A DNA stretch of 64,000 nt, from positions 1,244,875-1,308,874 of the forward strand of contig NZ_NSKH01000023.1 of the NCBI RefSeq assembly GCF_003144095.1. The letters are read 5' to 3'. The notes beneath the pieces were generated by a model. It was not told the origin of the DNA. It made no database searches and saw only the letters and a list, made by a program, of their open reading frames with translations. The position numbers and the translations under genes are program-made. Of this stretch, positions 1 to 17,593 are shown one piece after another. This DNA comes from Streptomyces sp. ICBB 8177 (lineage in GTDB: Bacteria; Actinomycetota; Actinomycetes; Streptomycetales; Streptomycetaceae). Position 1 is the stretch's first letter, and the number at the start of each line of letters is the position of its first letter.

Positions 1-1665
1 GTCGGTGGCGCCGGTGGCGGGCATGCCGCCCGATCCCGTGCCGGGCATCATCGGCATGCCGCCGCTGCCGGCCAACTTCTCTTCGTCCGCGCCGAGTTCG
101 CCGGGGAATGCCTCGGCTTCGTCGTCGGTGGGGAGGTTGTCGAGTCCTTCGCCGCCTGCTTGGGTGCCGTTGCCGCCGATGTCGTCGGCGACGCCGGGGT
201 CTCCGGTCCAGGGTTCGGCGTCGGAGTCGAGGAGTCCTGAGGCGTCGCTGGGATCGGTGGCGCCGGTGGCGGGCATGCCGCCCGATCCCATGCCGGGCAT
301 CATCGGCATGCCGCCCGCCCCGGTCCCGGTGCCGCCGGGGAAGCCCTCCGCCTCCTCGTCGTCGAGGGCGCCGGGCGACTCCAGCGCGTCGTCCAGCGTG
401 GCCGGCGTCTTCAGCTCGCCGGGCAGGCCCGACTCCTTGGCGAGGTCACCGGGGAACGCCTCGGGCGCGTCGTCGCCGAGTGCGTCCGGAGAGCCGAGCG
501 CACCGGTGCCGCCGACCCCGGTGTCGCCGGGGAAGTCCTCGGGCGCCGCGTCGTCGCTCCACGCCTGCGGGTTCTCGTCGGCCAGCTTCTCGTCCGGCGA
601 GAGCCCGTCACCCGTGCCGGTGCCGAGGCCGCCGAGGAACGCGCTCGGCGTGAGCGTCGGCATGTCGCCGCCCCCCACCCCGTCGCCGCCCTGGAACGGG
701 GTGGGGTTGAGCGCCCTGTCCAGCGCCGCGGGATCGAGGGCGTCGTTGGCCAACCCGTCGTCCGCCCCGCCCAGATCCGGCGCGTCACCCCCGACGCCCG
801 TTCCGCCGCCGAACGGGGCCGGCGACGCCGCCAGGGCGTCCATCGGGCTGAGGGCGTCCATCGTCGGGGCGTCCACGCCGGTGGTGTCCGGGACCGAGAA
901 CTGCTGCGGCGTGCCGGGATCGACCGCCTGCAACTGGGGGGTCGACAAGTCCGGATCGGGAACGTCCGGGGTGTCGTCCGGGGGAGTGTCGGTGGGGTTG
1001 GTCACCGGCGTCGGGTTCTTCACCGAGTCGATGGTGACCTGGTACTCGCCCGCCAGACTCTTGAGCACCGCCCGCATGTCGTTGGTCATCATGTCCACGA
1101 GTTGGGGCTTCTCGTGGATCGGGATCAGCCCGTTGCTCATGGGCTGCACGCCCATCTTCACCGCCTGGTCGGCGTACCAGGAGTCGATGTCGGCGATCTT
1201 CGTCTGGGCGTTGTAGAGGTTGACCGAGTTGTCCGCGAGCTGCTGCGGCACGGAGTTGCCCGCCTCGCCGCCGGAGAGCACGTCGACCGTTGCCTTCACC
1301 TGACGGGAGAAGGTGTTCATCATGTCGAGGAACGCGTCGGCGGCGTCGCCCTTCCACGGCCCGTTGTCACCGGCCAGGGCGGTGGCCTGGTCCGCAAGGC
1401 TCTTGGCGATGCCGGCCAGCACGGTCTGGGCGTCGAGGAAGTACCCCGCGGCGTCCATCAGGGACTGGGGGTCGGCGATGCCCTTGGCGCGGGACTCGTT
1501 CGAGGACGAGTCGGTTCCGGCGGACATGCCGTTGATGGCCGCCATGATCTGCTTCCAGTCCCAGGAGTCGTAGTCCTGGATCGACCCCGGATCGCTGGTG
1601 GGATCGCCGAAGGTGCCGTCGTCGGTGGTGCTGAACCCGCCGCTGTCGTCCGGGCTGTCACTCAT
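1..1665 (-). CDS. ESX-associated WXG-containing repeat protein (C-terminus cut by window edge)
   Basis: The start ATG is at 1665 and at least 555 residues are visible; the stop lies left of base 1. Residues about 30-200 look like a WXG100-type helical hairpin, with the turn motif WKGDAADAF. After about residue 210 the protein becomes a Pro/Gly/Asp-rich low-complexity tail with several EAFPG/EDFPG motifs and two copies of GGMPMMPG(M/T)GSGGMPATG. Its place as the last visible gene of the ESX operon suggests a secreted or surface-exposed substrate, which is inference. A strong 18-bp hairpin lies just upstream, so it may be transcribed at a different level from the esx pair. Function unknown. Confidence 0.75.
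   Translation of the reverse strand, partial: MSDSPDDSGGFSTTDDGTFGDPTSDPGSIQDYDSWDWKQIMAAINGMSAGTDSSSNESRAKGIADPQSLMDAAGYFLDAQTVLAGIAKSLADQATALAGDNGPWKGDAADAFLDMMNTFSRQVKATVDVLSGGEAGNSVPQQLADNSVNLYNAQTKIADIDSWYADQAVKMGVQPMSNGLIPIHEKPQLVDMMTNDMRAVLKSLAGEYQVTIDSVKNPTPVTNPTDTPPDDTPDVPDPDLSTPQLQAVDPGTPQQFSVPDTTGVDAPTMDALSPMDALAASPAPFGGGTGVGGDAPDLGGADDGLANDALDPAALDRALNPTPFQGGDGVGGGDMPTLTPSAFLGGLGTGTGDGLSPDEKLADENPQAWSDDAAPEDFPGDTGVGGTGALGSPDALGDDAPEAFPGDLAKESGLPGELKTPATLDDALESPGALDDEEAEGFPGGTGTGAGGMPMMPGMGSGGMPATGATDPSDASGLLDSDAEPWTGDPGVADDIGGNGTQAGGEGLDNLPTDDEAEAFPGELGADEEKLAGSGGMPMMPGTGSGGMPATGATD
256..313 (-). repeat. Second copy of a 252-bp-offset in-frame coding repeat
   Basis: About 58 bases here match positions 4-61 with few changes, at an offset of 252 bases (84 codons). 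The repeat therefore stays in frame and encodes the duplicated Met/Gly/Pro motif of the repeat protein. Further copies may lie beyond the left edge. Confidence 0.8.
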
Positions 1666-1755: not shown

Positions 1756-2310
1756 TCAACTGTTCCCGCCGCTACCGGCCGTGCCGCCGGCGTCGGTCAT
1801 CATGGTGGTGAAGTCGCTGTCGGTGCTCTGCATGGCGTTCTGCAGGTCCGTCGCCTTCATCGTCCCGGCCTCCTCCAGGGTCGTGTACTTCTGCGCCAAC
1901 TGCTTCACGCCGTCGCGCAGATCACCCAGACCCTGGGCGAGGTCCTGGAACACCTTGATGTACTGCTCCTTGAGCCCGGAATCCGCGTTGAGGCCGTTGA
2001 CCTTCGTGCGGATCTGGTTCGCGTGGTAGAACGCACCCGGCTCGGCCTGGACGCCCTGCAGCTTGGTCGCGGCGTCCTTCGCGGGCTGGATGAGCTTGTC
2101 GACGTTGTCAGCGAACAACAGCATCGACGGGGTGTCCACGCTCGTGCCGCTGCCGGGCGCCCCCGAACCGCCGGGCACGTTCGGCGCGTTGAAGGGCGTC
2201 GCCTGTGGCAACGTGCCGTGGCCGGCCGGCACCGTGGTGCCGCCGTCGTACGCCTTCGGCTGGTAGGGGGGCGGCTGCTTGTGCGGCTGCCTGACGGGAG
2301 GGACATACAT
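1756..2310 (-). CDS. ESX-associated 184-aa hypothetical protein
   Basis: The start is ATG at 2310, 6 bp after the stop of the upstream WXG100 gene, so the two are translationally close. Residues 1-55 are Pro/Gly-rich (PPVRQPHKQPPPYQPKAY). Residues 60-165 are predicted helical and charged, like a WXG100-type hairpin but without a clear W-x-G turn. The tail is Gly/Ser-rich. No signal peptide is visible. Position between the WXG100 pair and the repeat protein suggests an accessory substrate or chaperone-like partner of the ESX system. I do not recognise a named family. Confidence 0.75.
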   Translation of the reverse strand: MYVPPVRQPHKQPPPYQPKAYDGGTTVPAGHGTLPQATPFNAPNVPGGSGAPGSGTSVDTPSMLLFADNVDKLIQPAKDAATKLQGVQAEPGAFYHANQIRTKVNGLNADSGLKEQYIKVFQDLAQGLGDLRDGVKQLAQKYTTLEEAGTMKATDLQNAMQSTDSDFTTMMTDAGGTAGSGGNS

Positions 2311-2316
2311 CCGGCG

Positions 2317-2604
2317 TCACCCCCAGAGCTGAACGCCCTGGCGTTCACCGTTGGAGTAGTACTCGTTGATGGTGCCGAGCATCTGGGTGGCGGCGGCGGC
2401 CTTCTGGGTCATGTCGGCGGCGGCGGCGTCCCACTGGGCCTTGACCTGGGCGTAGGTCTGCTGGGCGTCGCTGGTCCACTCGCTCAGGTTGACCTTCGAC
2501 TGGTTGTCGAGGTCGGCGAGGGTCTGGTTGATGCGCTGGGTGATGGAGTTCATCTCGCCGACGATGTAGTCGACCTGCTCCATCTGAACGGTGTACGTGG
2601 CCAT
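2317..2604 (-). CDS. WXG100-family ESX substrate (EsxA/EsxB-like, WTS variant)
   Basis: The protein has 95 residues, the usual WXG100 length, and folds by prediction as a helix-turn-helix hairpin. The turn reads EWTSDAQQTY, so the usual W-x-G is W-T-S. The C-terminal end carries YSNGE, fitting the YxxxD/E export signal of ESX heterodimers, which the neighbouring WXG100 protein lacks. An AAGGAG ribosome site lies upstream of ATG 2604. It most likely forms a heterodimer with the 2657-2998 product and is recognised by EccC; this is family knowledge and was not shown here. Confidence 0.88.
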   Translation of the reverse strand: MATYTVQMEQVDYIVGEMNSITQRINQTLADLDNQSKVNLSEWTSDAQQTYAQVKAQWDAAAADMTQKAAAATQMLGTINEYYSNGERQGVQLWG

Positions 2605-2656: not shown

Positions 2657-2998
2657 TCAGGAGGGGAAGCCCGGCAGGCCGATGCTGCCGGAACCCATCT
2701 GCTGGGCGACCTGCTGGGCCTGCTGCTGGGTGTTCTCGTGGGTGTTGGCGTACACGTTGGTGTTCTGCGCCAGCTTCTCCAGCATGGTGCGCAGCGCCTG
2801 GTTGACCTTGTCGAAGTCCGACAGCCACTCCTGCATGGCGTTGTGGTAGATGGTGGCGGCCTCGCCGGTCCAGTTGGACTGCAGACCCTCGATCTGCCCG
2901 TCCATCTGCGCGTACGAGCTGGTCGCCTCGTCCAGAGCGGTCTGGAACGTCTGCTGGGCCGCAGTCATTCCCTGCAGTTCGACTGACGTCAGTGCCAT
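2657..2998 (-). CDS. WXG100-family ESX substrate (canonical WTG)
   Basis: The 113-residue protein has the canonical WXG turn (NWTGEAATIYHNAM) at about residue 43 between two long amphipathic helices. The C-terminal third is Gln-rich and ends in a flexible GSGSIGLPGFPS tail. No YxxxD/E motif is present in the tail, so export would depend on its partner at 2317-2604. AAGGGA precedes ATG 2998. It is the first gene after the 154-bp gap following the AAA gene and is 52 bp from the second WXG100 gene. Confidence 0.92.
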   Translation of the reverse strand: MALTSVELQGMTAAQQTFQTALDEATSSYAQMDGQIEGLQSNWTGEAATIYHNAMQEWLSDFDKVNQALRTMLEKLAQNTNVYANTHENTQQQAQQVAQQMGSGSIGLPGFPS

Positions 2999-3152: not shown

Positions 3153-6100
3153 TCATGTGCGCACCAGGGATTCCGCTTCCTGGGGCGGTGGCCCCGCCGG
3201 TCCCGGCGGTGGTTGCGCGGGGCCGGACGCGGGGCTCGGTGGGCTGGTGGTGTCCGAGGGCGCCGAGCCTTTGCCGGAGCCTGTCGGCGCCGGGGCCCGG
3301 GGCAGGTCCGGGACGGAGACGGTACGGGTACGCGCGCAGGCCACCAGGCGTTCGGCGAGCCGGTGCGCCTCCCAGGCACCGCCACGCGGCGGCGACGCCT
3401 CGAACGACGCCGCCAGCACCTTGGCCGCGTCGTCGGCCAACTTGAAGCCGTAGTCCCGCATGCGACCTCGGGTCAGCTCGATCGCCTGCTCGGCCGTGTA
3501 CGGCTCCAAGCGCAGGTATTCGGCGAACTCCTCGGCGATGCTCGCCCGTTCGGCCATCAGGGCGCGCAGCCCTTCGGGCGAGCCGCACAGGGCCAGCACG
3601 GTGTCGCCCGGCACCGCGGCCAGGCGGCCGAGCCCGTCGAGCACCGCGCTCCGCTCGGCCGGTGACCGGCGGCCGAAGGCCTCGTCCAGCTCCACCACCA
3701 GCACACCGCCCTCCGCCTCCGTCAGCGCGGCGGCCAGCAGGTGCGTGGGCTGCTCGGGCCAGCGCACCGGCACCGCGGACAGCTTCACCTCGTGCACGGT
3801 GCCCGACGTCAGCAGTCCCGCCTCGGTCAGGCAGCGCGCGTAGACCCGGGCCAGCGCCCTGCGCCCACTGCCGGGCGCGCCCTCCAGCACCACGTTGGCC
3901 TGCGCCGACAACGGCTGGGCCCGCTGCTCCCGCGCCGCGCCCAGCGCTTCGAGCCGGGTGAGCAGCGCCGCGCGGGCGGCGTCCAGGCCGGTCATCGCCG
4001 CGAGCTTCCGCAGCCCGCCGGACGGACCGTCCTCCCCGGCCGGTCGCCCACTCGACGGGCGCGCCGCACCGGACGGCCGGGCGGCGGCGGAGGTCCTCGC
4101 GCCCGTCGTGGCATCGGGCGCTGCCCTCGTGGCCGGCGCGCCGGTGCCGCCCTTCGCCGCGTTCGGGTCGGCGGGGACGGTGATGACGTCGGCGCCGGTG
4201 AGGCGGGAGAGTTCGTCGTCGTGGGTGGGGGGTTGAGTGGCGAGGCGGGAGGCCTGGCGGCTGATCATTTCTTCGAAGACCTGGCGGGCGACGCGGCCGT
4301 TGCCGAAGGTGGCGGTCTTGGGTACGTCCTCGAAGTAGCGGTTCAGCGCGTCCAGCGCTGAGGGGGTCAGTTCGTAGTAGTGCTTGCCGCACAGTCCGCG
4401 CACGATGGTGACGAGTTCGGTGGGGCTGTAGTTGGGGAATTCGACGGTGCGGGCGAAGCGGGAGGCCATGCCCGGGTTGGAGGCGAGGAACTGGTCCATC
4501 TGGGCGGAGTATCCGGCGACGATGACGACGATTTCGTCGCGGTGGTCCTCCATGAGTTTCATGAGGGTTTCGACGGCTTCCTGGCCGAAGTCGGGTCCGG
4601 TGCCGCGGGACTGGTTGGTGAGGGTGTAGGCCTCGTCGATGAACAGGACGCCGCCGAGTGCTTTGTTGAAGACTTCGGTGGTCTTGATGGCGGTGCCGCC
4701 GATGATCTGGGCGACGAGGTCGGCGCGGGCGACTTCGACGATGTGTCCTTGGGCGAGGATGCCGAGTTCGGCGAGGACGGCGCCGTAGAGGCGGGCGACG
4801 GTGGTCTTGCCGGTGCCGGGGGGCCCTGCGAAGACGAGGTGGCGGCTCATGGGGGGCATGGGCAGGCCCATCTCCATGCGCCGCTGGGTCATCTTGTTGA
4901 GGTTGATCAGGCCGGTGACCTCGCGCTTGACGCTCTCCAGACCGACCAGCGCCTCCAACTCCGCCAACGGGCCGGTGGACACCTCGCCCGCCGCCCGGGC
5001 GTCGGGCCCTCCCGGCTGCTGCGCGCCGTCCGCGGTGGTGGCGGTGCGGCCGTGCGGGTCGCCGCCGGTGTCGACGCGTTCCACGGACACCTGGGCGGAT
5101 TTGAGCTGGTGGACGGGGCGTCCGCCGTTGTCGCGCACTTCGCAGTCGTGGACGCGTACCGGTTCGTCGGTGTTGCAGCGCACGCCGTCGCCGCCGTTGT
5201 CGAAGACCGCGCAGTTGGTCAGCTCGGCACGCGACGACGCCTGCACGGTGACCCCGTGCCCGCGGGCCCCGTTGATCCGGCATCCCACGGCGGTCAGCGC
5301 GCCACCGCTCGTCACCCGCACACCGTCGGAGTCCGACCGGCTGAACTCGCTGTCACGGGCGGTCAGTTCGGCCTCCGCGCCGACGAGCGTGAGGCAGCCG
5401 GTGAACTCGCAGCCGTCCACCTCCGCACGCGCCCCGGACGCCAGCGCGAGACCCGTACCGCCACCGGAACGCAACCGCACCGACGACAACGCACCGACCG
5501 CACCCTCCTCCAACTCCACCCCCACCGCACCACCGACCGCCAGCTCGGCGTCCCGCACCGTCAACCGGGCACTCGCCCCCGTCGCCCGCGCGGCGGGGCC
5601 GCCGCCCTCGGTCGTCAGACGCTCCAGGACGGCTTCGCCACCGGCCGCGTGCACGGCCGCCGTCGCCGCGTCCTCCACAGTCAGCCCGGCGCACTCGGCG
5701 TGTGCGTCCTTCTCCACGAGCAGCCCGACCGGAGTACCGGTCACACGGCACTCCTCCAGCCGGGGCCGTCCGCCCGGCGCCACGTGCACGCCCTCGCGCC
5801 TGGCCCCGGACACCACGCACTCGCGCAGCACCGGAGCGCAGCCGGTGCCCACGTGCAGCGCCTGGCCACCGGAGCCGGTGAACACACAGCGCGTCAGGGC
5901 GACGTCGGAGGCGCTGGTCAGGTAGGCGTCCAGCGCCGCGCTGCCGGTGACCTCGACGCCGGTGAGCTGCGCGCGGGCGTTCTGCTCGACGGCGAGAGCG
6001 GGCTTGCCCGTGCCGGTGACACGCGTGGCCTCGACCGTGACGGTGGCCTGCCCGTTGGCGCAGATGCCGTTGCCACGGGCCCGGTCCAGCTCGCACTCCC

Positions 6101-6617
6101 GCAGCGTCAGGCGGCCGTGCTCCGCGACGACGACGGCGGAGGAGGCGACCTCGCTGATCCGGGAACGTTCGACCGCGTTGCCACCACCGGAGGTGACGAC
6201 GATGCCCGCGCCCTGGGAGTTGGTGATCCGGCAGTCGCGCAGCGCGATCACGCCGTCCTGCCACGCCAGGACGGCGGCCCAGGCCTCGCCGGACAAGTGG
6301 CAGGCGTCGAGGGCGGCCTGTCCGCGCCGTACGTCCAGCACGGGGACCTCGCGGTCGGTGCCGGACAGGTGCAGGCCGGTGAGCTGCACGGCCTCGGTCT
6401 CCAGCACGAGGGTGCTGCCGCTCGCGGAGGTGATCTCCACCGTTCCCGCGGCGCCCTCGGCGGCGAGCGTGACCGGGCGGGTGACGTAGAGAGTCTCGTC
6501 GTAGCGGCCGGGGGCGATGGTGATCAGGGCACCGTCGGGCGCGTCCGCCAAGGCGTCCTTGACCGCTCGGTAGGTCCCCGGACGATCCGGGGACACCAGT
6601 AGCACGGACCGGCTCAC
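3153..6617 (-). CDS. EccA-like AAA ATPase with N-terminal parallel beta-helix
   Basis: The 1154-residue product starts at a GTG that overlaps the upstream stop (GTGA). Residues about 15-510 are short repeating beta-helix rungs with recurrent L.....C.(I/V)T or L..C.F.G patterns, as in pectate-lyase-like right-handed helices. A full AAA domain follows: Walker A GPPGTGKT at residues 598-605 and Walker B VLFIDEAYTL near 660, of the CbbX/EccA type. A second AAA-like domain has a degenerate Walker A (GAPGSGRR, Lys replaced by Arg, near residue 915) and VLVVELDEAF near 975. The C-terminus is Pro-rich. EccA proteins are cytosolic ATPases of ESX systems; the beta-helix fusion suggests a scaffold or binding surface. 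Confidence 0.88.
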   Translation of the reverse strand: MSRSVLLVSPDRPGTYRAVKDALADAPDGALITIAPGRYDETLYVTRPVTLAAEGAAGTVEITSASGSTLVLETEAVQLTGLHLSGTDREVPVLDVRRGQAALDACHLSGEAWAAVLAWQDGVIALRDCRITNSQGAGIVVTSGGGNAVERSRISEVASSAVVVAEHGRLTLRECELDRARGNGICANGQATVTVEATRVTGTGKPALAVEQNARAQLTGVEVTGSAALDAYLTSASDVALTRCVFTGSGGQALHVGTGCAPVLRECVVSGARREGVHVAPGGRPRLEECRVTGTPVGLLVEKDAHAECAGLTVEDAATAAVHAAGGEAVLERLTTEGGGPAARATGASARLTVRDAELAVGGAVGVELEEGAVGALSSVRLRSGGGTGLALASGARAEVDGCEFTGCLTLVGAEAELTARDSEFSRSDSDGVRVTSGGALTAVGCRINGARGHGVTVQASSRAELTNCAVFDNGGDGVRCNTDEPVRVHDCEVRDNGGRPVHQLKSAQVSVERVDTGGDPHGRTATTADGAQQPGGPDARAAGEVSTGPLAELEALVGLESVKREVTGLINLNKMTQRRMEMGLPMPPMSRHLVFAGPPGTGKTTVARLYGAVLAELGILAQGHIVEVARADLVAQIIGGTAIKTTEVFNKALGGVLFIDEAYTLTNQSRGTGPDFGQEAVETLMKLMEDHRDEIVVIVAGYSAQMDQFLASNPGMASRFARTVEFPNYSPTELVTIVRGLCGKHYYELTPSALDALNRYFEDVPKTATFGNGRVARQVFEEMISRQASRLATQPPTHDDELSRLTGADVITVPADPNAAKGGTGAPATRAAPDATTGARTSAAARPSGAARPSSGRPAGEDGPSGGLRKLAAMTGLDAARAALLTRLEALGAAREQRAQPLSAQANVVLEGAPGSGRRALARVYARCLTEAGLLTSGTVHEVKLSAVPVRWPEQPTHLLAAALTEAEGGVLVVELDEAFGRRSPAERSAVLDGLGRLAAVPGDTVLALCGSPEGLRALMAERASIAEEFAEYLRLEPYTAEQAIELTRGRMRDYGFKLADDAAKVLAASFEASPPRGGAWEAHRLAERLVACARTRTVSVPDLPRAPAPTGSGKGSAPSDTTSPPSPASGPAQPPPGPAGPPPQEAESLVRT

Positions 6618-9600
6618 AGCTTCGCTCCCTCGTCAGACACACTCACACCGCCATCGGCTCCCGGCCGCCGCACCCGAGCACCGCCGATCAGGCCCGGAGG
6701 CGTCGCCAGGGGCCCTTCCTCGCGGCGCTCGCCGCGCTTGCCCCGCGCCGCGGTGTCCTCGCTCCGGCGCAACGCGGAGACCGCCCGCTCCAGTCCGTCC
6801 AGGGCGATCTCGTCCAGCGGCACCCGCCGGACGTCGACCCTGCCCTCGCCGTCCATCTCCGAGGGCGACAACTCCCGCATCAGGACCGGGCCTTCACCGT
6901 CCGAGGCGCGCAGCACCTTGAAGGTGGTGCCGGGCAGGAAGACGATGCGGAAGGGGTCGGCCGGGTCGATGAGGGCGGTGCGGCGGGCGGTCATCGACCA
7001 GATCAGGAAGTCGGTGCCGTCCGGCGGGCCGGGGCGCGGGGCGCTGTGCGCGGTGCAGAACGCCCACTCCGTGGCGAGCCGCCCCTCGCGGTACCAGTCG
7101 CGCTCGGCCGCGGTGGTCCGGGCGCGCAGCAGCGCCGCCCCGCGGTACGACGGCAACCTGCGCAGACCGGCCGCCACGCACCGGGCGAGCGGCACGTGCG
7201 GGCCGACCGAGGCCGACCGCACGGCCTCGTCGACCTGCGCGCTGTCGCCCGACAGGTACAGCCGTACGGCCACCAGGTCGGTCAGCGCGTCGGCCGCCTC
7301 GCTCCGGCTGCCGCCCCGCAGGCCCGGCGACTCGGACATCACGCGCGAGACGGTGCCCGCGACGGCGTTGTACTGCGCGCTGAAGGTGCGCCGGACCCAG
7401 TCGCGTTCCTGGCCCGTGCCACGCTCCGGCGGAACGGCGCAGGCGGACGTCTTCGGCACCGGCTGCACCCGGACCCCGGCCGCCGCCGCGCGGGGCGCGG
7501 CGGCGGGACCCTCGGCGGGCACGGGCCGCGCGGGCGAGGGCCCGGCCGGCCCGGCGGGAGCGCCCGGTCCCGGGCCGGGATCCGGCTCGACGGCACGCGT
7601 CGGGGCGGCGGCCGGTGAGTCGGACTCCAGACGGATCATCCGGGCGGGCGAGGGCGCCGCCGGACGCGCGGGCTCGCGAACCGCGGGCGCGGCCTGCGCC
7701 ACCGCGTCGGGTGGAGGGGACGCCTCCGGAGCCTTCGGCGCGGCGAGCGCGTCCGGGTCACGCGGTGGCTCAGGGCCGCGTGGCGGTTCCGGTGCGCCGG
7801 GCGGCCCGGACGCCACGGGCAGGCTGGGCAACTCGGGCCCAGGGAGGGCGGAAGGCTCGGGCGTGCGGTCGGACGCCGCCGGGTCCTGCCGCCCGGCACC
7901 CGGCGTCACGTACGGCAACGGCTCGCCGGTGGGCGGCTGTTCGGGAGCACGCTCGGGTCCGGCGGGCGGGGCGTCCCGCTGCGGGACGGGGGCCGGCGCG
8001 GGCGCGGGTGCTGCGCCCGTGGCGGGCGGCGGCGTGGCCTGTCGTTCGGCGGTCGTCCCCGAAGTCGCCACGGCCGTGCGTCCCTCGTCCGCCACCCCGT
8101 CACCGCCCCCCGCCTCCGGGGCGGTGTATTCCGTGCTGGGCAACGGAGTCGACGGCACGTCGGTTTCGGTGCGGGCGGACTGCGGTGCCGGAGCCGGTGC
8201 GGCGGGGGCGGCGGCGTCGGGACGGCTGACGACGGAGGCGTACGACGGGTCGTCAGGGTTGAGGCTGGCCAGCGCGGACGCGGGGCCTCCCTGCGTCTCC
8301 CGCGGCGCCGCGGTGTGCTCCTGCGCCTCCGGTACGGCGGACTCCGGCGTCCAGGGCGCGATGTCGGCCGGACGGCTGTGCACCCCGCGGGCCGGTGCCA
8401 CGACGGCCTGCGGCCCTGAGGCCGCCGGGTCCTGCGGCGACCACAGATAGGCGTCCTCGGCCGGCCCGGACCGCACGCCCGGCTCGTCGGCGGGCGCGAC
8501 CGTGAAGCCCTCGCGCGTGTCGGGGTCGAGCTTCCAGAGCATGTCCTCGGCGAGCGAGCGCATGCGCTCCTCGGTCCCCGGGACGCTGCGGTCGTAGAGG
8601 ATGGCCGCGTACCCGGGGGTCGCGGGGATGCGGCGCACGGCGTCGCCGTCGGCGGGCTCGGTGTGCGGGCGCATCCACAGACCGCTCTGGACGACTTCGA
8701 GCACCGCGTCGGAGGCGTACTCGTAGACGCCCGTGGTGATCTCCGGCACGCCGTACAGGGGTGCGCGCAGGCCGAACAGGGCGGGCGGCGGCGCCGAGCG
8801 GGACGTGCGCGGGAAGTACATCAGCTCGCTGACGAACGGGCGGGCGCCGAGCGTGCCGTCGCAACCGACGGACACCACGTCGGGCGAGTCGAGACCCCGG
8901 CGCGGAGTGACGGGCAGGCCCGCGTACAGCACGACCTGCTGGCGCAGCGTGTCGGCGAGGTGCTGGCCGAGCGACTCTGCGGTGTCGGGCAGCGCGACCG
9001 GCCCGAAGTGCAGGAAGCGGACCCAGGAGCGGGCCGACGGCAGGACGGTGTCCCACCACCGGATGATGTCGGTCAGCGGCAGGGGCGGGCAACCGGGGGC
9101 GCCGAGGACGGCCGTGAGGATGTCCGGGTGGCTGGGCAGGTGGTCGACGAGCCACTGGCGGCCACCGGGGAAGGCGTCGGTGGAGCGGTTGTGCAGCCAC
9201 ACGCCGCTGGGGACCGGCTCGACGACGGCGTGGCTGCTCGTGGTCCAGGGCCGGTCGAAGGTGGAGAACTCCCAGCGGGGCTTGGGGAAGCGCTGCGAGT
9301 CGCGTTCCGGGGTACGGCCGGGGCGGTAGCGCAGCCACCCCGCGCCGTGGTCGCTGGGTACGAACAGTCCGCCGTCGGCGGTCGGCAGCACGTGGCCGTC
9401 CGCGGCGAGCACGAGGCGGTCGAGGCGTTCCGCGACGTGCTGCGCGGTGCGCCGGGCCTCTTGCGCGGTCGCGCGTCCGAAGACCAGGCGCAGACTCGGC
9501 CCGTACGGCGTCAGGTGCCGCGCCAGCGCCTCGGCGGAGGCCTCCAGCGTGCCGAACGGCAGGTCGACGACGGCCAGGGCGTGCTGGGGGTCGGGGGCGA

Positions 9601-9736
9601 GCCGGGTCGCGAACGCGACGGCGCGCGGGTCGGGTTCGCCCTTGGCGTGGACCAGGACGGCGTGGCCGGCGCCGCGGCTCTGCAACGCGGTGCCCGCGGT
9701 CTTGACGCCACCGAGGCCGATGCGCACGCCCCTCAC
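6614..9736 (-). CDS. ESX-locus large hypothetical with Pro/Ala-rich linker and degenerate ART-like C-terminus
   Basis: About 1040 residues. I chose GTG 9736, which overlaps the eccB stop (GTGA) after GAAGG; GTG 9727 is the alternative. Residues 1-420 form a globular alpha/beta region. Residues about 430-770 are a Pro/Ala-rich disordered linker. Residues about 850-950 resemble an ADP-ribosyltransferase fold: YRGA at the first-strand Arg position, FCTAHS where STS is expected, and FRIVFLPGTTFKVL like the last ART strand but without the E-x-E pair. The ART reading is inference from pattern only, and the domain looks catalytically dead. The last bases overlap the beta-helix AAA gene, so the two are translationally coupled. 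Confidence 0.75.
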   Translation of the reverse strand: MRGVRIGLGGVKTAGTALQSRGAGHAVLVHAKGEPDPRAVAFATRLAPDPQHALAVVDLPFGTLEASAEALARHLTPYGPSLRLVFGRATAQEARRTAQHVAERLDRLVLAADGHVLPTADGGLFVPSDHGAGWLRYRPGRTPERDSQRFPKPRWEFSTFDRPWTTSSHAVVEPVPSGVWLHNRSTDAFPGGRQWLVDHLPSHPDILTAVLGAPGCPPLPLTDIIRWWDTVLPSARSWVRFLHFGPVALPDTAESLGQHLADTLRQQVVLYAGLPVTPRRGLDSPDVVSVGCDGTLGARPFVSELMYFPRTSRSAPPPALFGLRAPLYGVPEITTGVYEYASDAVLEVVQSGLWMRPHTEPADGDAVRRIPATPGYAAILYDRSVPGTEERMRSLAEDMLWKLDPDTREGFTVAPADEPGVRSGPAEDAYLWSPQDPAASGPQAVVAPARGVHSRPADIAPWTPESAVPEAQEHTAAPRETQGGPASALASLNPDDPSYASVVSRPDAAAPAAPAPAPQSARTETDVPSTPLPSTEYTAPEAGGGDGVADEGRTAVATSGTTAERQATPPPATGAAPAPAPAPVPQRDAPPAGPERAPEQPPTGEPLPYVTPGAGRQDPAASDRTPEPSALPGPELPSLPVASGPPGAPEPPRGPEPPRDPDALAAPKAPEASPPPDAVAQAAPAVREPARPAAPSPARMIRLESDSPAAAPTRAVEPDPGPGPGAPAGPAGPSPARPVPAEGPAAAPRAAAAGVRVQPVPKTSACAVPPERGTGQERDWVRRTFSAQYNAVAGTVSRVMSESPGLRGGSRSEAADALTDLVAVRLYLSGDSAQVDEAVRSASVGPHVPLARCVAAGLRRLPSYRGAALLRARTTAAERDWYREGRLATEWAFCTAHSAPRPGPPDGTDFLIWSMTARRTALIDPADPFRIVFLPGTTFKVLRASDGEGPVLMRELSPSEMDGEGRVDVRRVPLDEIALDGLERAVSALRRSEDTAARGKRGERREEGPLATPPGLIGGARVRRPGADGGVSVSDEGAKL

Positions 9737-11265
9737 CCGGCCTTCGCCGAACCGGTGGGCGCCGGACGCCTGGACACCGACGGCGCGGGGGCACTCACCG
9801 CCGCCCGGCGGCCACTCGCCGCCCTGGAGCCCCGGGCGGCCCCGGACCCGCCGCCCACCGGCGCGGACGCGGGCGCCGGCGCGGACGCGGACGCTGACGC
9901 GGGCGCACTCGGCGAGGCCGCGGGCTGCTGACCCTGCACCGTCGCCGCCGCGGCCGTACGGTCGAGCGCCGGCCCGTGCGGCAGCGCCGCCAGCACGCTC
10001 CCCGGCAGCGCCGTCTCGGTGCCGCCGCCGATGCCGAGATCCTGCGCGGCGGAGGAGTCGCCGAGCGGGTAGGCGACGCCCTGGTCGGTGATGAGCCAGG
10101 TCTGCGGGTTCGACGCCTGCGCGGCCAACTGCCCCTGGTCGACGGCGTAGACACCGTGTGAGGGCGGTACGAGGACCGGGTCGGCACCGGTCGCCGCCGC
10201 GCCGGACTCGACCGCCGCCTGCGCGGTCAGCCGTGTGCCCTGCGAGGACTCGCGCAGGCACACGGCCCGCGTGGTCGTGTCCACCGACGGGGCGTTCAGA
10301 ACGTCCGGCAGCGCGCTGGTCATCGACTGGTCGTCGGAGACGCGGGCGGCGGCGATGTCGGACACCGAGACCTGCCGCGGCGCCGGTGCGCCGTGCTGCG
10401 CCGCGAGCAGTGCCGCCTCCGTGGCGCTGACCGGGGCCACGCCCGCCGACGTCATCACGTAGAAGCGCTTGGCCCCCGCCGCAGATGTGCTGAACAACTG
10501 GCCGACGGTGGACGGCTGCCCGCCGACCTGCCCGGCGGACTTGCCCACGCCCTCGATCCGTGCCGGGGCGAGCGCGACCCCGGTCGGTACCCCGGCCAGC
10601 CAGGCGGCGGGCGCCGCGATGGAGCGGTCGGCGTCCAGCCCGAGGGCGATCAGCGTGGAGTCCGACGGCACCGGGTACTTCGTTCCCTGCCACAGCACGT
10701 AACGCGTGCCGTCCGGCGCGGCCAGCAACGCCTGCTTGCCGGAGGGGAAGGCCGCGGCCCGCGCGCCCGGCGCGAAGTCGAAGACCTGACCCGCCGCCAG
10801 GTCCGGACGCAGGCAGTCGGTCCACGACGGCGACAGCAGGTTCGCGGCCGTCGGCACGGAGTCGGGGGCGCCGTCGATGCCGACCGGCGCGCCGTGCGGT
10901 ACGTCCGCCAGCGCCTTCGACGCGACGGTGCGCACCGCCGCGCCCTTGCCGGTGAGCAGCAGCGCGGAGGCGTAGTTGCGCACCGGGCGCAGTTCGCCGC
11001 CGAGGTAGAGGTAGCGGTTGCCGGTCTCCTTCTCCACGATGATCGAACCCGGCTGCCGCCAGGCCGCGGTGGTCACCGGCGACAGCTTCCCGTAGATGAG
11101 GAACCCGACGCTCAGCAGGACGACGATGCCCGCGCCGAAGAACGTGCCCAGGGCGGCGCGTCTGGTCGGGCTGTCGCCCCGGCCCGGGTCGCCGGTGACG
11201 AGAGCGGTGGCGAGGCGGCCCATGGCGAACTGGTACGCCTGCATGTGATCGCGTCGTGTCTGCAC
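9733..11265 (-). CDS. eccB: Type VII secretion protein EccB
   Basis: The 510-residue protein starts at GTG 11265, 24 bp after eccD. The N-terminus has the EccB signature RRDHMQAYQFAMGRLATALV, then one transmembrane helix at about residues 44-62 (GIVVLLSVGFLIYG). A large extracytoplasmic domain follows, with four or so repeated YVL/YPLGD-like modules. The last 70 residues are an Ala/Ser/Pro-rich tail. EccB is a single-pass core component of the ESX membrane complex with EccC, EccD and EccE. Confidence 0.93.
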   Translation of the reverse strand: MQTRRDHMQAYQFAMGRLATALVTGDPGRGDSPTRRAALGTFFGAGIVVLLSVGFLIYGKLSPVTTAAWRQPGSIIVEKETGNRYLYLGGELRPVRNYASALLLTGKGAAVRTVASKALADVPHGAPVGIDGAPDSVPTAANLLSPSWTDCLRPDLAAGQVFDFAPGARAAAFPSGKQALLAAPDGTRYVLWQGTKYPVPSDSTLIALGLDADRSIAAPAAWLAGVPTGVALAPARIEGVGKSAGQVGGQPSTVGQLFSTSAAGAKRFYVMTSAGVAPVSATEAALLAAQHGAPAPRQVSVSDIAAARVSDDQSMTSALPDVLNAPSVDTTTRAVCLRESSQGTRLTAQAAVESGAAATGADPVLVPPSHGVYAVDQGQLAAQASNPQTWLITDQGVAYPLGDSSAAQDLGIGGGTETALPGSVLAALPHGPALDRTAAAATVQGQQPAASPSAPASASASAPAPASAPVGGGSGAARGSRAASGRRAAVSAPAPSVSRRPAPTGSAKAG

Positions 11266-11289: not shown

Positions 11290-12684
11290 TCAGCTCGTCA
11301 GGGAGCGGAAGGCGGAGTAGGCGTGCAGGGCTTGCAGCAGCAGGGGCAGCAGCGCGATCGCCGTGATGGTCTCCAGCAGGTCGCCGCTGTGCCCCCACAC
11401 CGGCAGCAGCCGCCCGGTCGGCAGCCGCCAGGCGGCGGCCAGCACGGCGGCCACGGCCGCGAGGAGCACGACCACCACGGCGAGCCGCGCCCCGGCACCG
11501 AGCGGCGCGAAACGGGCGAGCGCGACGGTGATCAGGCCGAGCGCGCCGGCCACGACCATCGGCACGCGCTGCGCCGAGCGGTTCAGGCCGCGCGAGCGCA
11601 GCAGGACGGCACCGGCGAAGACCAGCGGCAGCAGCCAGCCGATCCAGCCGCTCTCGCGCGTCATGTACCAGAAGCCGGCCACGTACACGAGCGCGGAGGA
11701 GACGCTGAGGGTGTCCAGGTAGGCGCTGGCGGCCTGGACCTGCTCCTGGATCCGCTCCCCGGAACCCGGCTCGATGTCCTCCTGCAACTCCTCGGCGTTG
11801 TGCGGCAGTCGGGGCACGCGCAGCCGGGACATGCGCAGCGACAGCCGCGGCCCGAAGTGCCCGAGCACGAACATCGCGACGGCGACACACGTCACGGCCT
11901 GCGCGCCGTGCCATCCGGTGGCCCGCATCAGTCCGGTGCCGACGGCGGCGGCCAGCGCGGTGAGCAGGACGGTACCGGGGACCACCAGCGGCAGCGGCCG
12001 CAACGCCAGCAGCGCGGCCGCCAGGACGACCACGCACACCGCCGCCGCCAGCACCCCGGGCAGCCCGGGTGCGTAGCCCCCGTGCGGTCCGTGGCGGAAC
12101 GTCAGTCCGGCCAGGGCACCGAAGGCGATCGAGCCCAGGCCCGCCACCAGTACCGTGCCCCGGTCGGCGTCCAGTCGCGCCGCGGCCACGCACCCGGCGG
12201 CCAGTGCGACGGCGATCGCCCCGGCGCCGACCGCGGTCCCGGTGCCGGGGCCGAAGCCCAGCAGCGCGGCGGCCAGCGCGGGCATCGCCAGGACGGCCAT
12301 CGCCAACGCGAGGGCGCGGGTCAGCCGGGGCGTCCAGCGGCCGGGCAGCGCGTCGACGGCCTGGGCGACGCCGTCGGCGACGTCGTCGAAGTGCAGCGCG
12401 GGCAACGGCTCCTGCGCGGGCCGCAGATGCAGGACGTCACCGTGGCGCAGCCCCAGCGTGGCGGGTGTGCCGTCGGCGTCCAGCGGATCCTCGCCGAGCC
12501 GTTGCAGCACCCACGGCGTCCCGCGTTCCGCGGGGTCCTTCGTCACGTGCCGCGCCAGCACCGGGAGCAGCGCGGAGACCGGAGTGCTCAGCGGGATCGC
12601 GAGATCGGCCCGCCCGGCCGGTCCCACGACCGTGACCCGGCACACCTCCGAGGCCGGTGCGGTGACCGCATGTGCCGTGGTCAT
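11290..12684 (-). CDS. eccD: Type VII secretion integral membrane protein EccD
   Basis: I chose ATG 12684 (464 aa) because CAGGAGC lies 6 nt upstream; an in-frame start at 12732 lacks this. Residues 10-95 form the ubiquitin-like domain typical of EccD (CRVTVVGPAGRADLAIPL, then LRHGDVLHLRP). The remainder holds about eleven hydrophobic helices. A charged cytoplasmic loop lies mid-way (ELQEDIEPGSGERIQEQV). EccD forms the membrane channel vestibule of the ESX complex. It follows eccC by 97 bp and precedes eccB by 24 bp. Confidence 0.93.
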   Translation of the reverse strand: MTTAHAVTAPASEVCRVTVVGPAGRADLAIPLSTPVSALLPVLARHVTKDPAERGTPWVLQRLGEDPLDADGTPATLGLRHGDVLHLRPAQEPLPALHFDDVADGVAQAVDALPGRWTPRLTRALALAMAVLAMPALAAALLGFGPGTGTAVGAGAIAVALAAGCVAAARLDADRGTVLVAGLGSIAFGALAGLTFRHGPHGGYAPGLPGVLAAAVCVVVLAAALLALRPLPLVVPGTVLLTALAAAVGTGLMRATGWHGAQAVTCVAVAMFVLGHFGPRLSLRMSRLRVPRLPHNAEELQEDIEPGSGERIQEQVQAASAYLDTLSVSSALVYVAGFWYMTRESGWIGWLLPLVFAGAVLLRSRGLNRSAQRVPMVVAGALGLITVALARFAPLGAGARLAVVVVLLAAVAAVLAAAWRLPTGRLLPVWGHSGDLLETITAIALLPLLLQALHAYSAFRSLTS

Positions 12685-12781
12685 CGGGTTGCTCCTGGGG
12701 TGCGGTGGTTCGGCAGGGACGGGAGCGGACACGGGATGCCGCCATGGGCGAACGGTGAACGGCGCGTCGGCAGGGCACGGG

Positions 12782-15700
12782 TCACGGGGTCACCAGTCCG
12801 GTCTGGACGAGTTTGACGGAGCGGCGGGTGACGAGTTGGGCGCGGCCCTGGGGGAGGGTGCGGGGTTTGGCCTCGCCGAGGAACTTGCCCTCTTCCTTGG
12901 GGTAGGAGAAGAGGAGGGCGGGGTTGCCGAGTTCCCACAGGCGGCGCAGGACGGGGTCCATCATGGCGCGGATGGCGCCCGAGGTGCTGCGGGCGACGAC
13001 GAGGTGCATGCCGATGTGCAGGCCCTGGGCGAGGAGGGGGACCAGGGGTGCCATGGGCGAAGGGGCGCCGGGGGTGCCGGAGAACAGGTCGTAGTCGTCG
13101 ATGAGGACGAACAGCAGGGGGCCTTCCCACCAGTCGCGGCGGGCGAGTTGCTCGGGGCTGACGTCCGGCCCCGGGACCCGCTTGCCCACCGACACCGCCG
13201 CGTTGCCGGCGAGTTGGGTGAGGGCGTCGCTGTCGACGACGTAGCCGACGCGGTACTCCTCCGGCACGGACTTGAGCAGGCCTCGACCGGGGTCGGCGAC
13301 CATGATGCGTGCCTGGTCGGGCGTGTAGCGCGAGGTGATCGACCGGATCATCAGGCGCAGGGCGTTGGTCTTGCCGGTCTCCCCGTCGCCGAAGACCATC
13401 AGGTGGGGGTTGGTGGAGAAGTCGTGCCAGGTGGGTTCGAGGCGCTGTTCGTCCCAGCCGAGGCACACGCGCAGGTCGCCTTCTGCGGGCGGGAGCTGGG
13501 CGGCGGGCAGGCGGGTGGGCAGCAGACGGACGCCCGGCGCGGGGTTGCCGGTCCAGAAGGTGTCGATCTCGGCGACGGCGGCTTTGGTGGCGGCGGTGAG
13601 GTCACCGGTCTCGCCGGAGCTGTCGAGGCGGGGGAGCGCGGCCAGGAAGTGGTGTCCGCCGGCGGTCAGGCCGCGTCCTGGCTGGTGGGGGACGGCGGCG
13701 GCGATGCGGGAGCCGACCTCGGATTCCATGGAGTCGCCGAGGCGCAGTTCGAGTTTGGTGCCGAGCAGATCGCGCAGGCGGGGGCGGATCTCGGACCAGC
13801 GGACGGCGGCGGCGACGACGTGGAGGCCGAAGGACAGGCCGCGGGCGGCCATGTCGATGACGCGGGCTTCGAGGTCCTCGTAGTCCTGGCGCAGGGTGCC
13901 CCAGCCGTCGACGACGAGGAAGACGTCGCCGTAGGGGTCGTCGATCTCTCCGGACGCCTTGAGCGCGCGGTAGGCGGTCATGGATTCCAGGCCGCGCGAG
14001 GTGAACTCCTCTTCGCGCTTTTCCAGCAGTTGGGTGAGTTCGGCGATGGTGCGCAGGACGCGGTCGCGTTCCAGGCGGGTGGCGACGGATCCGACGTGGG
14101 GCAGGCCCGCGGTGGAGACCAGTCCGCCGCCGCCGAAGTCGAGGCAGTAGAACTGGGCTTCTTCGGGGGTGTGGGTGAGGGCGAGCGAGAGCATGAGGGT
14201 GCGCAGGGTGGTGGACTTGCCGGTCTGGGGTGCGCCGACCAGGCCGATGTGGCCGTCGGCGCCGGACAGGTCGGCGACCAGCAGTTCGCGCAGTTGCTCG
14301 TAGGGTCGGTCCACGATGCCCAGCGGCACCTTGAGGGAGGACAGGGCGGGATGCCCCGAGGCGCTCATGCCGCGCACGGGGTCGGGGACGATGCCGGGCA
14401 GGAGCTGGTCGAGGCTGGGGGACTCGGTGAGCGGGGGCAGCCACACCTGCCGGGCGGGCGGGCCGCTGTCCTCCAGCCGCCCGATCAGCACCTCCAGCAG
14501 ACTCTCCTCGGCCTGCGGTTCGGAGCCCGGGGCCGGCTTCTCCGGCTCGCGTTCGGCGGCCCGCAAGGACTGCCCGGCCAGCTCCGCGAGGCTTTCGTCG
14601 GCACGCTCGGACAGCAGCGCGCCCTGCTGCTCCAGGCCGAAGACGGTGATCTCCTGGCCGACCCTGGCCTGTTCGGCGCTGCGCTCGGCCTCGGACGGCG
14701 GCTCCGGCGCGGGGCCGGAGACGTAGGCGGCCTTGAAGCGGACCAGGTTGGTGGTGTCCACCTTGAGGTAGCCGTTGCCGGGGGCGGACGGCAGTTCGTA
14801 GGCGCTGGAGACGCCGATGACGCTGCGCGACTCCATGGAGGAGAAGGTGCGCAGGGCGATCCGGTACGACAGGTGGCCCTCCACCTTGTGGATGCGGCTC
14901 TCGTCCAGCCGTTGCGAGGCCAGCAGCAGGTGGACGCCGAGGGAGCGCCCCAGCCGTCCGATGGAGACGAACAGGTCCACGAACTCCGGCTTGCTGGCGA
15001 GGAGTTCGGAGAACTCGTCGACGATGATGAGGAGGGAGGGCAGCGGGGTGAGGTTGGTGCCGGCCGCGCGGGCCTTCTCGTAGTCGTAGAGGCTGGAGTA
15101 GCCGGATTCGCGCAGGAGTTCCTGGCGGCGGATCATCTCGCCGTTGATGGAGTCGCGCATGCGGTCCACGAGGTGGATCTCGTCGGCGAGGTTGGTGATG
15201 ACGGCGGAGGTGTGCGGCAGGCGGTCCATGCCGAGGAAGGTGGCGCCGCCCTTGAAGTCGACCAGGACCATGTTGAGGACTTCGGAGGAGTGGGTGGCGA
15301 CCAGGCCGAGGACGAGGGTCCGCAGCAGTTCGCTCTTGCCGGAGCCGGTGGCGCCGATGAGCAGGCCGTGGGGTCCCATGCCGCCTTGCGCGGACTCCTT
15401 GATGTCCAGCTCGACGACCTCGCCCTCCTCCGTGACTCCCAGCGGGACGAGCAGCCGCGCGGACTGCGCCTGCCGGGGACGCCACTTCGCCGCCACGTCG
15501 AACGTGCGCGGATCACGGATGCCCAGCAGCGCCGTCAGGTCGAAGTCCGACTCCAGCGGCCGGTCCACCAGGTCGACGCTCCCACTGGTACGCATCGGTG
15601 CGAGGGTGCGCGCGAGGGTGTCGGCCCGCGTGAGGCCGAGGGCGTCCGCGCGCGCCGAGACGGTGCTGTCGCCGGAGGGGAACTCGACCTGCCCGTCGCG

Positions 15701-16804: not shown

Positions 16805-17593
16805 GTCACACGGCTCCTTGTCGATCGTAGCCGCGTCAACTGGTGACGATGAGTTCAACTGATGAAGACGGTGACTCCCCCGGTGGGGTGACAATACGCC
16901 TGGATCGCTCGCGTCCGGTGAACGGTCGTTGAACTCGTGAACGTCATTTGAGTAAACGTTGCCTGGACGTTGACCTGTTGTCGCCTGGTGGGCGCGTGGT
17001 CGCTGAGCGGGTCGAACGCCGGTCGCTCAATTGCCGTCCGAATGACCCGGGGGGGCGTCCGGTGGGTGCGAGTGCTGCGTATGGCGCGGTCGCCGCGTGC
17101 CGGACGGTTCGCGCGGTGGTGGGGCCGTGGCTGTAGGCGCGTTCGGGCGCCGGTGCGCGTGGTGCGTGGTCGCCATGGCCACCCCTCCCGACGGGCGTGC
17201 GGCCTCCCGGACCCCGGGATCCGCAACTGCCGCTGCGTACTGTCACTTTGAGCCGCGCCAAATCGGAACGCAACCCCTCGCGCGAGGGGTTGCGCGTCGC
17301 CGTCGTCTCTGCCGCCTCACGGTACAACCGTTGGCACGTTCGTCAAACGCCCGGGTCGGCGTCGCCCCTGTTGAGAGGCTTGCCGCAGGGGTCTTCCCGG
17401 CGCCTCAAATTACGATCAACACCGTTGACGCGGCACCGGGGAGAGGTGGCCGTTGGATGTGTTCCGCGGTGGCCGTGGCTTACTTTTTGACGTCACGTCA
17501 CATTGCCTCTGTGGCTGCTGTGTGTTCTCCATCACGGCTGCGACCGCGTCGGCGACATGCCGGGGCCTGGTGCCGCGGGCCGCGTGGTGGCGG
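16805..17593. other. 789-bp intergenic region upstream of the ESX operon
   Basis: No convincing gene is seen. The region must hold the eccC promoter. On the minus strand a TACGAT element lies close upstream of eccC, but no good -35 is spaced to it. Two direct GTGAACG copies (16918-16924 and 16937-16943, 19 bp apart) with a third GAAC between them could be a regulator site. A perfect 26-bp palindrome lies at 17269-17294. Confidence 0.6.
17269..17294. repeat. 26-bp perfect palindrome
   Basis: Every base from 17269 pairs with its mirror to 17294 (arm CGCAACCCCTCGC). It lies 300 bp downstream of the tetR stop and 465 bp upstream of eccC, both on the minus strand. It could be the tetR terminator as a hairpin or an operator as duplex DNA. 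No U-run follows. Confidence 0.75.

What the first reader, a model, noticed from the sequence alone, without database searches (positions are those of the whole stretch)
3153..6617. EccA-like ESX ATPase fused to a long parallel beta-helix, with a dead second P-loop
Seen: about 500 residues of beta-helix rungs, then one intact AAA Walker A (GPPGTGKT) and a second with GRR in place of GKT. Known: EccA is normally a TPR plus AAA protein. Inference: the beta-helix replaces the TPR part as a substrate or cell-wall binding scaffold, and the second domain regulates the first.
Basis: partly seen in the sequence, partly recalled or inferred. Interest (0 to 1): 0.65.

Follow-up and report, generated by a model that had tools for sequence, protein, structure and literature searches.

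The report
Beta-helix ATPase of a secretion locus
A soil actinomycete's type VII protein-secretion gene cluster encodes a large helper protein made of a long beta-helix arm, one apparently working ATP-driven motor domain and one conserved but disabled motor domain, which looks like a separate invention from the usual helper EccA and may help hand very large proteins to the secretion machine.

Summary
ORF 3153-6617(-), 1154 aa, is a right-handed beta-helix (residues ~1-516), an intact CbbX/SpoVK/EccA-type AAA+ domain (~549-812) and a degenerate AAA+ copy (~866-1108) with GSGRR for GTGKT. The gene sits in an ESX operon, and 42 of 43 homologous loci of its set with enough flank carry eccB/C/D. 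But it is not EccA with its TPR part exchanged: in a tree, EccA and an EccA-like relative elsewhere in this genome form one clade, the beta-helix ATPases another. The fusion with a single AAA domain occurs outside ESX loci (10 of 10 fetched), including in this genome. New points: a sister set has two intact AAA domains (27 of 27); the window's clade lost the second one, apparently once, always with Arg for the Walker Lys (50 of 50), yet purifying selection keeps it. The gene overlaps by 4 bp a partner gene ending in an ADP-ribosyltransferase fold (45 of 49 loci; one frame with it in another), and the operon ends in a 5,314-aa WXG100-headed ORF. Most likely it is a cytosolic, ring-forming substrate-handling ATPase of an ESX variant without its own EccE and MycP. 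A 2023 preprint already mentions 'a beta-helix in EccA' in passing.

The parts
3153..6617 (-). beta-helix / tandem AAA+ protein, 1154 aa, GTG start
5070..6617 (-). right-handed beta-helix, residues 1-516
   Evidence: Pfam PF13229; AlphaFold DSSP and pLDDT; VIA-align 7o7t Z 20.9, rmsd 20.1, 457 aligned
4182..4973 (-). AAA+ domain 1 with lid, residues 549-812; Walker A, Walker B, sensor 1 and Arg-finger motifs present; pore loop IIGGT
4803..4826 (-). Walker A of AAA1, GPPGTGKT
   Evidence: Lys present in 80 of 80 rows
3294..4022 (-). degenerate AAA+ domain 2, residues 866-1108
   Evidence: model; two-domain match to p97/Cdc48 chains; tree; dN/dS 0.18-0.38 in nine clade-A pairs
3858..3881 (-). 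degenerate Walker A of AAA2, GAPGSGRR
   Evidence: Arg at the Lys position in 50 of 50 clade-A rows
6614..9736 (-). partner gene (called geneX here), 1040 aa: folded N-terminal part ~16-432, disordered Pro/Ala-rich ~433-752, C-terminal ADP-ribosyltransferase fold; 4-bp stop/start overlap with the beta-helix ATPase gene
9733..11265 (-). eccB
   Evidence: PF05108 6.3e-78
11290..12732 (-). eccD
   Evidence: PF19053 8.4e-74 and YukD 4.9e-18
12782..16858 (-). eccC
   Evidence: FtsK_SpoIIIE 2.9e-92, three stretches
2657..2998 (-). WXG100 protein
   Evidence: PF06013 3.7e-12
2317..2604 (-). WXG100 protein
   Evidence: PF06013 1e-6
1756..2310 (-). conserved operon protein, 184 aa, no Pfam match itself; a relative in L034 matches EspC/WXG100 weakly, below the cut-offs
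1..1665 (-). long WXG100-like protein with repetitive tail, cut by the window edge
   Evidence: PF06013 3.8e-5, below its cut-off

Best explanation
It is a cytosolic AAA+ substrate-handling protein of a second ESX locus, without its own EccE and MycP, in a streptomycete. AAA1 hydrolyses ATP in a ring (inferred from its CbbX-type domain). The dead AAA2 forms a second, non-hydrolysing ring that stabilises or couples the assembly, possibly still holding nucleotide. Beta-helix arms, together with the overlapping partner geneX, hold WXG100-type cargo, probably including the giant WXG100-headed protein, and present it to EccC. Shown: domain anatomy, motif states, loss of AAA2 motifs in one clade with continued purifying selection, ESX operon, gene overlap with geneX. 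Inferred: ring formation, cargo, hand-over to EccC, role of AAA2. It works like EccA, on this view, but belongs to a separate lineage.
For: AAA1 matches CbbX (Z 26.6) and EccA1/CbbX chains by sequence. Operon eccC-eccD-eccB-geneX-this gene-WXG100s recurs: eccB/C/D in 42 of 52 set-A database loci; nine of the other ten have contigs ending about 0.5-2.1 kb upstream, and L075 is the one exception with full flanks. 45 of 49 loci with geneX directly upstream overlap by exactly 4 bp, and L046 carries both in one 2098-aa frame. AAA2 dN/dS 0.18-0.38 in nine clade-A pairs, lower than the linker in 9 of 9; Walker B Asp kept in 49 of 50 although its Glu is kept in 12 of 50. No membrane or signal segment. 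The operon ends in a 5,314-aa ORF with a WXG100_2 head. EccA5 is cytosolic, and its deletion reduces but does not abolish ESX-5 secretion (PMC10597459, passages seen).
Against: No experiment and no complex prediction. AAA1 lacks the aromatic pore-loop residue in 48 of 53 clade-A rows, which argues against classical threading. The beta-helix is less conserved than AAA1 (dN/dS 0.11-0.37 against 0.03-0.14 in nine clade-A pairs). The single-AAA form lies outside ESX loci, so the module need not have a secretion role. An ESX system without its own MycP and EccE may depend on the other locus.
Confidence: 0.5

Rival explanations
1. True EccA whose TPR part was exchanged for a beta-helix.
For: ESX location; NCBIfam EccA match 1.6e-85; the preprint lists TPRs and a beta-helix as N-terminal domains of EccA and has its own tree of the clade, whose figure I could not see (passages).
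Against: The score 287.8 is below the EccA cut-off 466.65 and the best stretch starts at profile position 237, so the N-terminal part is unmatched. In the tree EccA and EccA-like relatives are separated from all beta-helix ATPases by starred branches. An EccA-like gene that also matches the N-terminal part of the EccA model already exists elsewhere in this genome.
Confidence: 0.15
2. A chaperone for a cytosolic or envelope-synthesis enzyme (as CbbX for Rubisco, SpoVK for MurG) that merely lies in an ESX operon.
For: Single-AAA beta-helix ATPases sit in a conserved non-ESX neighbourhood in 9 of 10 such loci fetched. The clade's known members are dedicated chaperones (PMC10659427 passages).
Against: eccB/C/D genes lie beside the gene in 42 of 43 set-A loci with enough flank, and MycP-type subtilases in 22 of 27 set-B loci.
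Confidence: 0.25
3. AAA2 is a decaying remnant with no role.
For: Walker Lys, Arg finger, aromatic pore loop and sensor 1 are gone in 50 of 50 rows, and AAA2 has long branches in the tree.
Against: dN/dS 0.18-0.38, lower than the neighbouring linker in 9 of 9 clade-A pairs, though only slightly in L023-L038 (0.32 against 0.34); the same Arg at the Lys position in 50 of 50 rows; Walker B Asp in 49 of 50; confident fold.
Confidence: 0.1

Closest known systems
EccA (ESX AAA+ ATPase)
   Same: Encoded in an ESX locus; AAA+ domain of the CbbX/SpoVK/EccA type; presumably cytosolic
   Different: Beta-helix in place of the TPR part; a second, degenerate AAA domain; separate clade in the tree; below the EccA cut-off
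CbbX (red-type Rubisco activase)
   Same: AAA1 is 42% identical over 265 residues, Z 26.6, rmsd 4.2
   Different: CbbX chains 3syk, 3syl and 3zuh (285-290 residues) match AAA1 only; no beta-helix, no second AAA domain, no ESX context known to me (recalled)
SpoVK
   Same: Best NCBIfam model by E-value; the clade's variable N-terminal domains are thought to recruit substrate (PMC10659427 passages)
   Different: Short N-terminal domain; sporulating Firmicutes only (same passages)
p97/Cdc48 and other tandem AAA proteins
   Same: Tandem AAA domains; two-domain structural match within 547-1109
   Different: 13-16% identity to p97/Cdc48, no beta-helix; a comparison with the dead rings of NSF or Pex1/6 is from memory
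Single-AAA beta-helix ATPase of the window's family (L094 in this genome)
   Same: Same beta-helix plus AAA architecture (Pfam), 34% identity over window residues 12-801
   Different: One AAA domain; no ESX genes in the fetched neighbourhood

Membership tests
EccA (TIGR03922) | TPR N-terminal domain | tested here: not met
   Best stretch starts at profile position 237; model shows a beta-helix there
EccA (TIGR03922) | Score above the curated cut-off of 466.65 bits | tested here: not met
   287.8 bits. One set-B relative, L080, passes at 482.8 by the sum of two AAA domains, so the score alone is not decisive
EccA (TIGR03922) | Encoded in an ESX locus | tested here: met
   eccB, eccC, eccD and WXG100 genes adjacent
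EccA (TIGR03922) | AAA domain groups with EccA in a tree | tested here: not met
   Separated by starred branches; no CbbX or SpoVK rows in that tree
CbbX/SpoVK/EccA higher clade | AAA domain, lid and GY in sensor 1 | tested here: met
   AAA_lid_6; AGY in AAA1 of 80 of 80 rows; GY signature as given in PMC10659427
Right-handed parallel beta-helix | Pfam Beta_helix above cut-off and helical model | tested here: met
   128.8 against 25.9 bits
T7SSa (ESX) locus | eccB, eccC, eccD and WXG100 genes | tested here: met
T7SSa (ESX) locus | eccE and mycP in the locus | tested here: not met
   The only EccE match in the genome is at the other ESX locus; MycP-type genes in 0 of 52 set-A loci within the flanks and none in the 20 kb overlapping the window's left edge; a distant mycP is not excluded
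ATP-hydrolysing hexamer | Oligomeric ring with ATPase activity | not testable with these tools
   Motifs complete in AAA1 only

The most novel reading that the evidence does not exclude
A T7SS loading complex built around apparent pseudo-enzymes: a tandem AAA+ ring whose second ring was switched from motor to a fixed, Arg-marked scaffold or nucleotide sensor (Walker B Asp kept, catalytic motifs lost), coupled one-to-one to an ADP-ribosyltransferase-fold partner, with beta-helix arms that hold giant WXG100-headed proteins in register for an ESX channel without its own EccE and MycP. The sister set with both AAA domains intact would show the ancestral motor.
Probability: 0.12. Interest if true: 0.75.

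Novelty: new variant of a known kind. Interest (0 to 1): 0.48.

Why it matters
EccA's role in type VII secretion is still unsettled (PMC10597459 passages). Here a different AAA+ lineage appears to have been recruited to ESX loci independently, with natural versions carrying one AAA domain, two intact ones, or one intact and one dead. This series lets the role of each ring and of the N-terminal arm be tested, and it points to an ESX variant that lacks its own EccE and MycP and carries a giant WXG100-headed protein.

Tried and rejected
Considered and rejected: (1) pectate or alginate lyase activity of the beta-helix: the lyase entries 7o7t and 7o77 match the fold at 13-14% identity, no pectate-lyase family was listed for the window protein and there is no signal segment; active-site residues were not compared. 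(2) Dead P-loop as a sequencing error: excluded by 50 of 50 relatives. (3) Cell-wall binding. (4) A wholly lost Walker B in AAA2: my first reading; on recount the Asp is kept in 49 of 50 rows and the Glu in 12 of 50, the window's included.

Results that limit my reading: AAA1 pore loop mostly without an aromatic; single-AAA relatives outside ESX; L075 (Saccharothrix, no AAA2) with no ESX gene in full flanks. 18 of 27 set-B loci show no eccB/C/D in the fetched flanks, though 22 of 27 have a MycP-type subtilase; L052, L070 and L074 show no ESX-type gene at all. The EccA model also gives weak matches in 14 of 14 control genomes at E 0.001, so only strong matches were used. L046's single frame could be a local sequencing frameshift; it is one genome.

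Dropped or partial: L079 (frame broken, set-B-like context) left out of the alignments and of the A and B counts; L039, L040 (contig ends) and L075 lack AAA2; the structure alignment used 52 of 80 rows after length and 85% identity filters. One search kept 80 of 102 relatives, and its peptide patterns came from the window protein, so set B is under-sampled. dN/dS pairs (11, nine of set A) were chosen by me, not drawn at random. Two window sub-domain references were out of frame by my error and were discarded, and the L083 reference matched nothing and is not used. Gene calls in loci come from my own G+C-frame script, not from a trained gene finder. The AAA tree holds no CbbX or SpoVK rows; eight of the ten EccA matches above the cut-off were given as loci and used. 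No source organism of the window was established.
Full report
WHAT IS THERE. The ORF at 3153-6617(-) encodes 1154 aa. Pfam finds Beta_helix (1.9e-37, three stretches), AAA (595-728) and AAA_lid_6 (752-811), with only weak AAA signal further on. NCBIfam puts the first AAA domain with SpoVK, EccA and CbbX, in that order of E-value, none above its cut-off. By sequence the closest solved structures are CbbX and the ESX-1 EccA1 chain. An AlphaFold model from 52 homologues (mean pLDDT 87.7, pTM 0.60) shows a beta-helix over residues 5-513 (ten-residue means 84-99 over 11-510), AAA1 at about 549-812, a disordered linker, AAA2 at about 866-1108 and a disordered tail; the low pTM means that the arrangement of the domains is not known. 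VIA-align gives CbbX 3syl_B Z 26.6, rmsd 4.2, 265 aligned; PL6 alginate lyase 7o7t Z 20.9, rmsd 20.1, 457 aligned over 5-518; and p97/Cdc48 chains over both AAA domains.

THE DEAD SECOND DOMAIN IS A CLADE TRAIT. One scan of genome contigs gave 102 relatives, 80 kept. I aligned 79 of them with the window protein; L079, whose frame is broken, was left out. They fall in two sets by the state of AAA2. In 27 of 27 rows of set B, AAA2 has GTGKT, LFIDE or LFVDE, and AGY, an aromatic pore loop and the Arg-finger motif. In set A (53 rows, window included), 50 rows reach AAA2: 50 of 50 have Arg at the Walker Lys, 0 of 50 have the aromatic pore loop, AGY or the Arg-finger motif, 49 of 50 keep the Walker B Asp, and 12 of 50 (the window among them) keep its Glu. 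L039, L040 and L075 do not have AAA2. AAA1 has Lys, AGY and the Arg-finger motif in 80 of 80 rows, but an aromatic pore loop in only 5 of 53 (A) and 0 of 27 (B; two have His). In a tree of 104 domain sequences from 52 proteins, AAA1 of set A is one clade (SH-aLRT 99), AAA2 of set A is one clade (100), and two Micromonosporaceae set-B sequences lie at the base of the AAA1 side if AAA2 is taken as outgroup. One loss of AAA2 activity from a double-active ancestor is the simplest reading. The quick method and the long AAA2 branches limit this. dN/dS for AAA2 in nine clade-A pairs of my choice is 0.18-0.38, in each pair below that of the adjoining linker (0.34-2.31) and above that of AAA1 (0.03-0.14): dead, but kept.

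NOT EccA. No CbbX or SpoVK rows were in it. The window's own genome holds one of those EccA-like genes (L091:9043-11115), whose N-terminal part matches EccA profile positions 1-158, away from ESX genes, and a second beta-helix protein with a single AAA domain (L094:8773-11235, 34% identical over window residues 12-801), also away from ESX genes. Ten such single-AAA loci were read in stretches of 15-20 kb: 0 of 10 show EccB, EccC, EccD, MycP, WXG100 or geneX matches, and nine share one conserved neighbourhood. Three further loci hold the beta-helix alone (572-600 aa). In the same call the five set-B-type and set-A-type loci L130-L134 all show ESX genes, and L135 shows geneX and c14 matches only.

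NEIGHBOURHOOD. The window has eccC, eccD, eccB, geneX, this gene, two WXG100 genes, a 184-aa gene and a long WXG100-like gene in one direction. To the left lie a YbaB-type gene, another WXG100-type gene and a 5,314-aa ORF with a WXG100_2 head. Much the same order recurs across set A. eccB/C/D were found in 42 of 52 set-A database loci; nine of the other ten lie on contigs that end about 0.5-2.1 kb upstream of the gene, and L075, which lacks AAA2, is the one exception with full flanks. MycP was found in 0 of 52 set-A and 22 of 27 set-B loci, and eccB/C/D in 9 of 27 set-B loci. The genome's only EccE match is beside its other EccB gene, where a MycP-type gene also lies. GeneX directly precedes this gene in 49 loci (48 of set A and L077 of set B), in 45 with an exact 4-bp overlap, also in the window (6614-6617); in L046, a Streptomyces nigrescens plasmid, the two are one 2098-aa frame. 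GeneX has no Pfam match. Its profile matches XopAI in the PDB at 2.1e-14, and its C-terminal domain has an ADP-ribosyltransferase fold (6k94_A Z 16.8, rmsd 2.7, 189 aligned). Whether it is an enzyme was not tested.

DISTRIBUTION. With the beta-helix part as query, 10 of 296 genomes spread over the phylum match at 1e-10, and 164 of 200 in the window's family; these counts include single-AAA and beta-helix-only forms. By my count of the listing, 30 of the 200 have a match of at least 430 bits, the level of set A; the state of AAA2 was not read in them. Closest is Streptantibioticus parmotrematis (90%), so the window is probably from that genus or near it.

MECHANISM. Shown: the anatomy, the motif states, the ESX operon, the overlap with geneX. 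From print (PMC10659427, passages seen): characterised members of this clade act as dedicated chaperones, with variable N-terminal domains thought to recruit substrates. For EccA5, deletion reduced but did not abolish secretion (PMC10597459, passages seen). Inferred: AAA1 powers a ring; AAA2 is a non-hydrolysing second ring, which may still bind nucleotide; the beta-helix arms and geneX bind WXG100-type cargo. The missing aromatic in the AAA1 pore loop suggests remodelling or release rather than long-range threading. I put the overall mechanism at about one in two.

KNOWN OR NEW. [quoted passage not shown] In five literature searches, seen as listings only, and the passages seen of four papers, I saw no description of the double-AAA form, the dead ring, the geneX coupling or the separation from EccA. 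Figures are not held and most subscription papers are missing, so this is weak evidence of absence. I rate it a new variant of a known kind.

Noticed in passing
window 6614-9736(-): Partner gene with a disordered Pro/Ala-rich middle and a C-terminal ADP-ribosyltransferase fold closest to XopAI; overlaps the ATPase gene by 4 bp and shares one frame with it in L046.
   Followed up: yes
L092:661-16605(-), genome contig C17 left of the window: 5,314-aa ORF with a WXG100_2 head and no other Pfam match at the end of the ESX operon. Relatives in 27 loci all run off the end of the locus held (up to 2,246 aa seen), so their full lengths are unknown.
   Followed up: partly
L094:8773-11235(-): Single-AAA beta-helix ATPase in a conserved non-ESX neighbourhood of the window's family; no function assigned here.
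   Followed up: partly
L127, L128, L129: Stand-alone beta-helix proteins (572-600 aa) related to the arm of this ATPase, without an AAA domain.
   Followed up: no
L051, L053, L060, L067, L073 and others: ORFs of about 2,600 aa upstream of set-B beta-helix ATPases beside MycP-type subtilases; the one scanned (L073) had no Pfam match.
   Followed up: partly
window 1-1665(-): Long WXG100-like protein with repeated Gly/Met/Pro-rich units in its tail, cut by the window edge.
   Followed up: no
L091:9043-11115(-): EccA-like gene lying among what look like rib and his genes (my reading of sequence, not a call), not beside ESX genes.
   Followed up: partly
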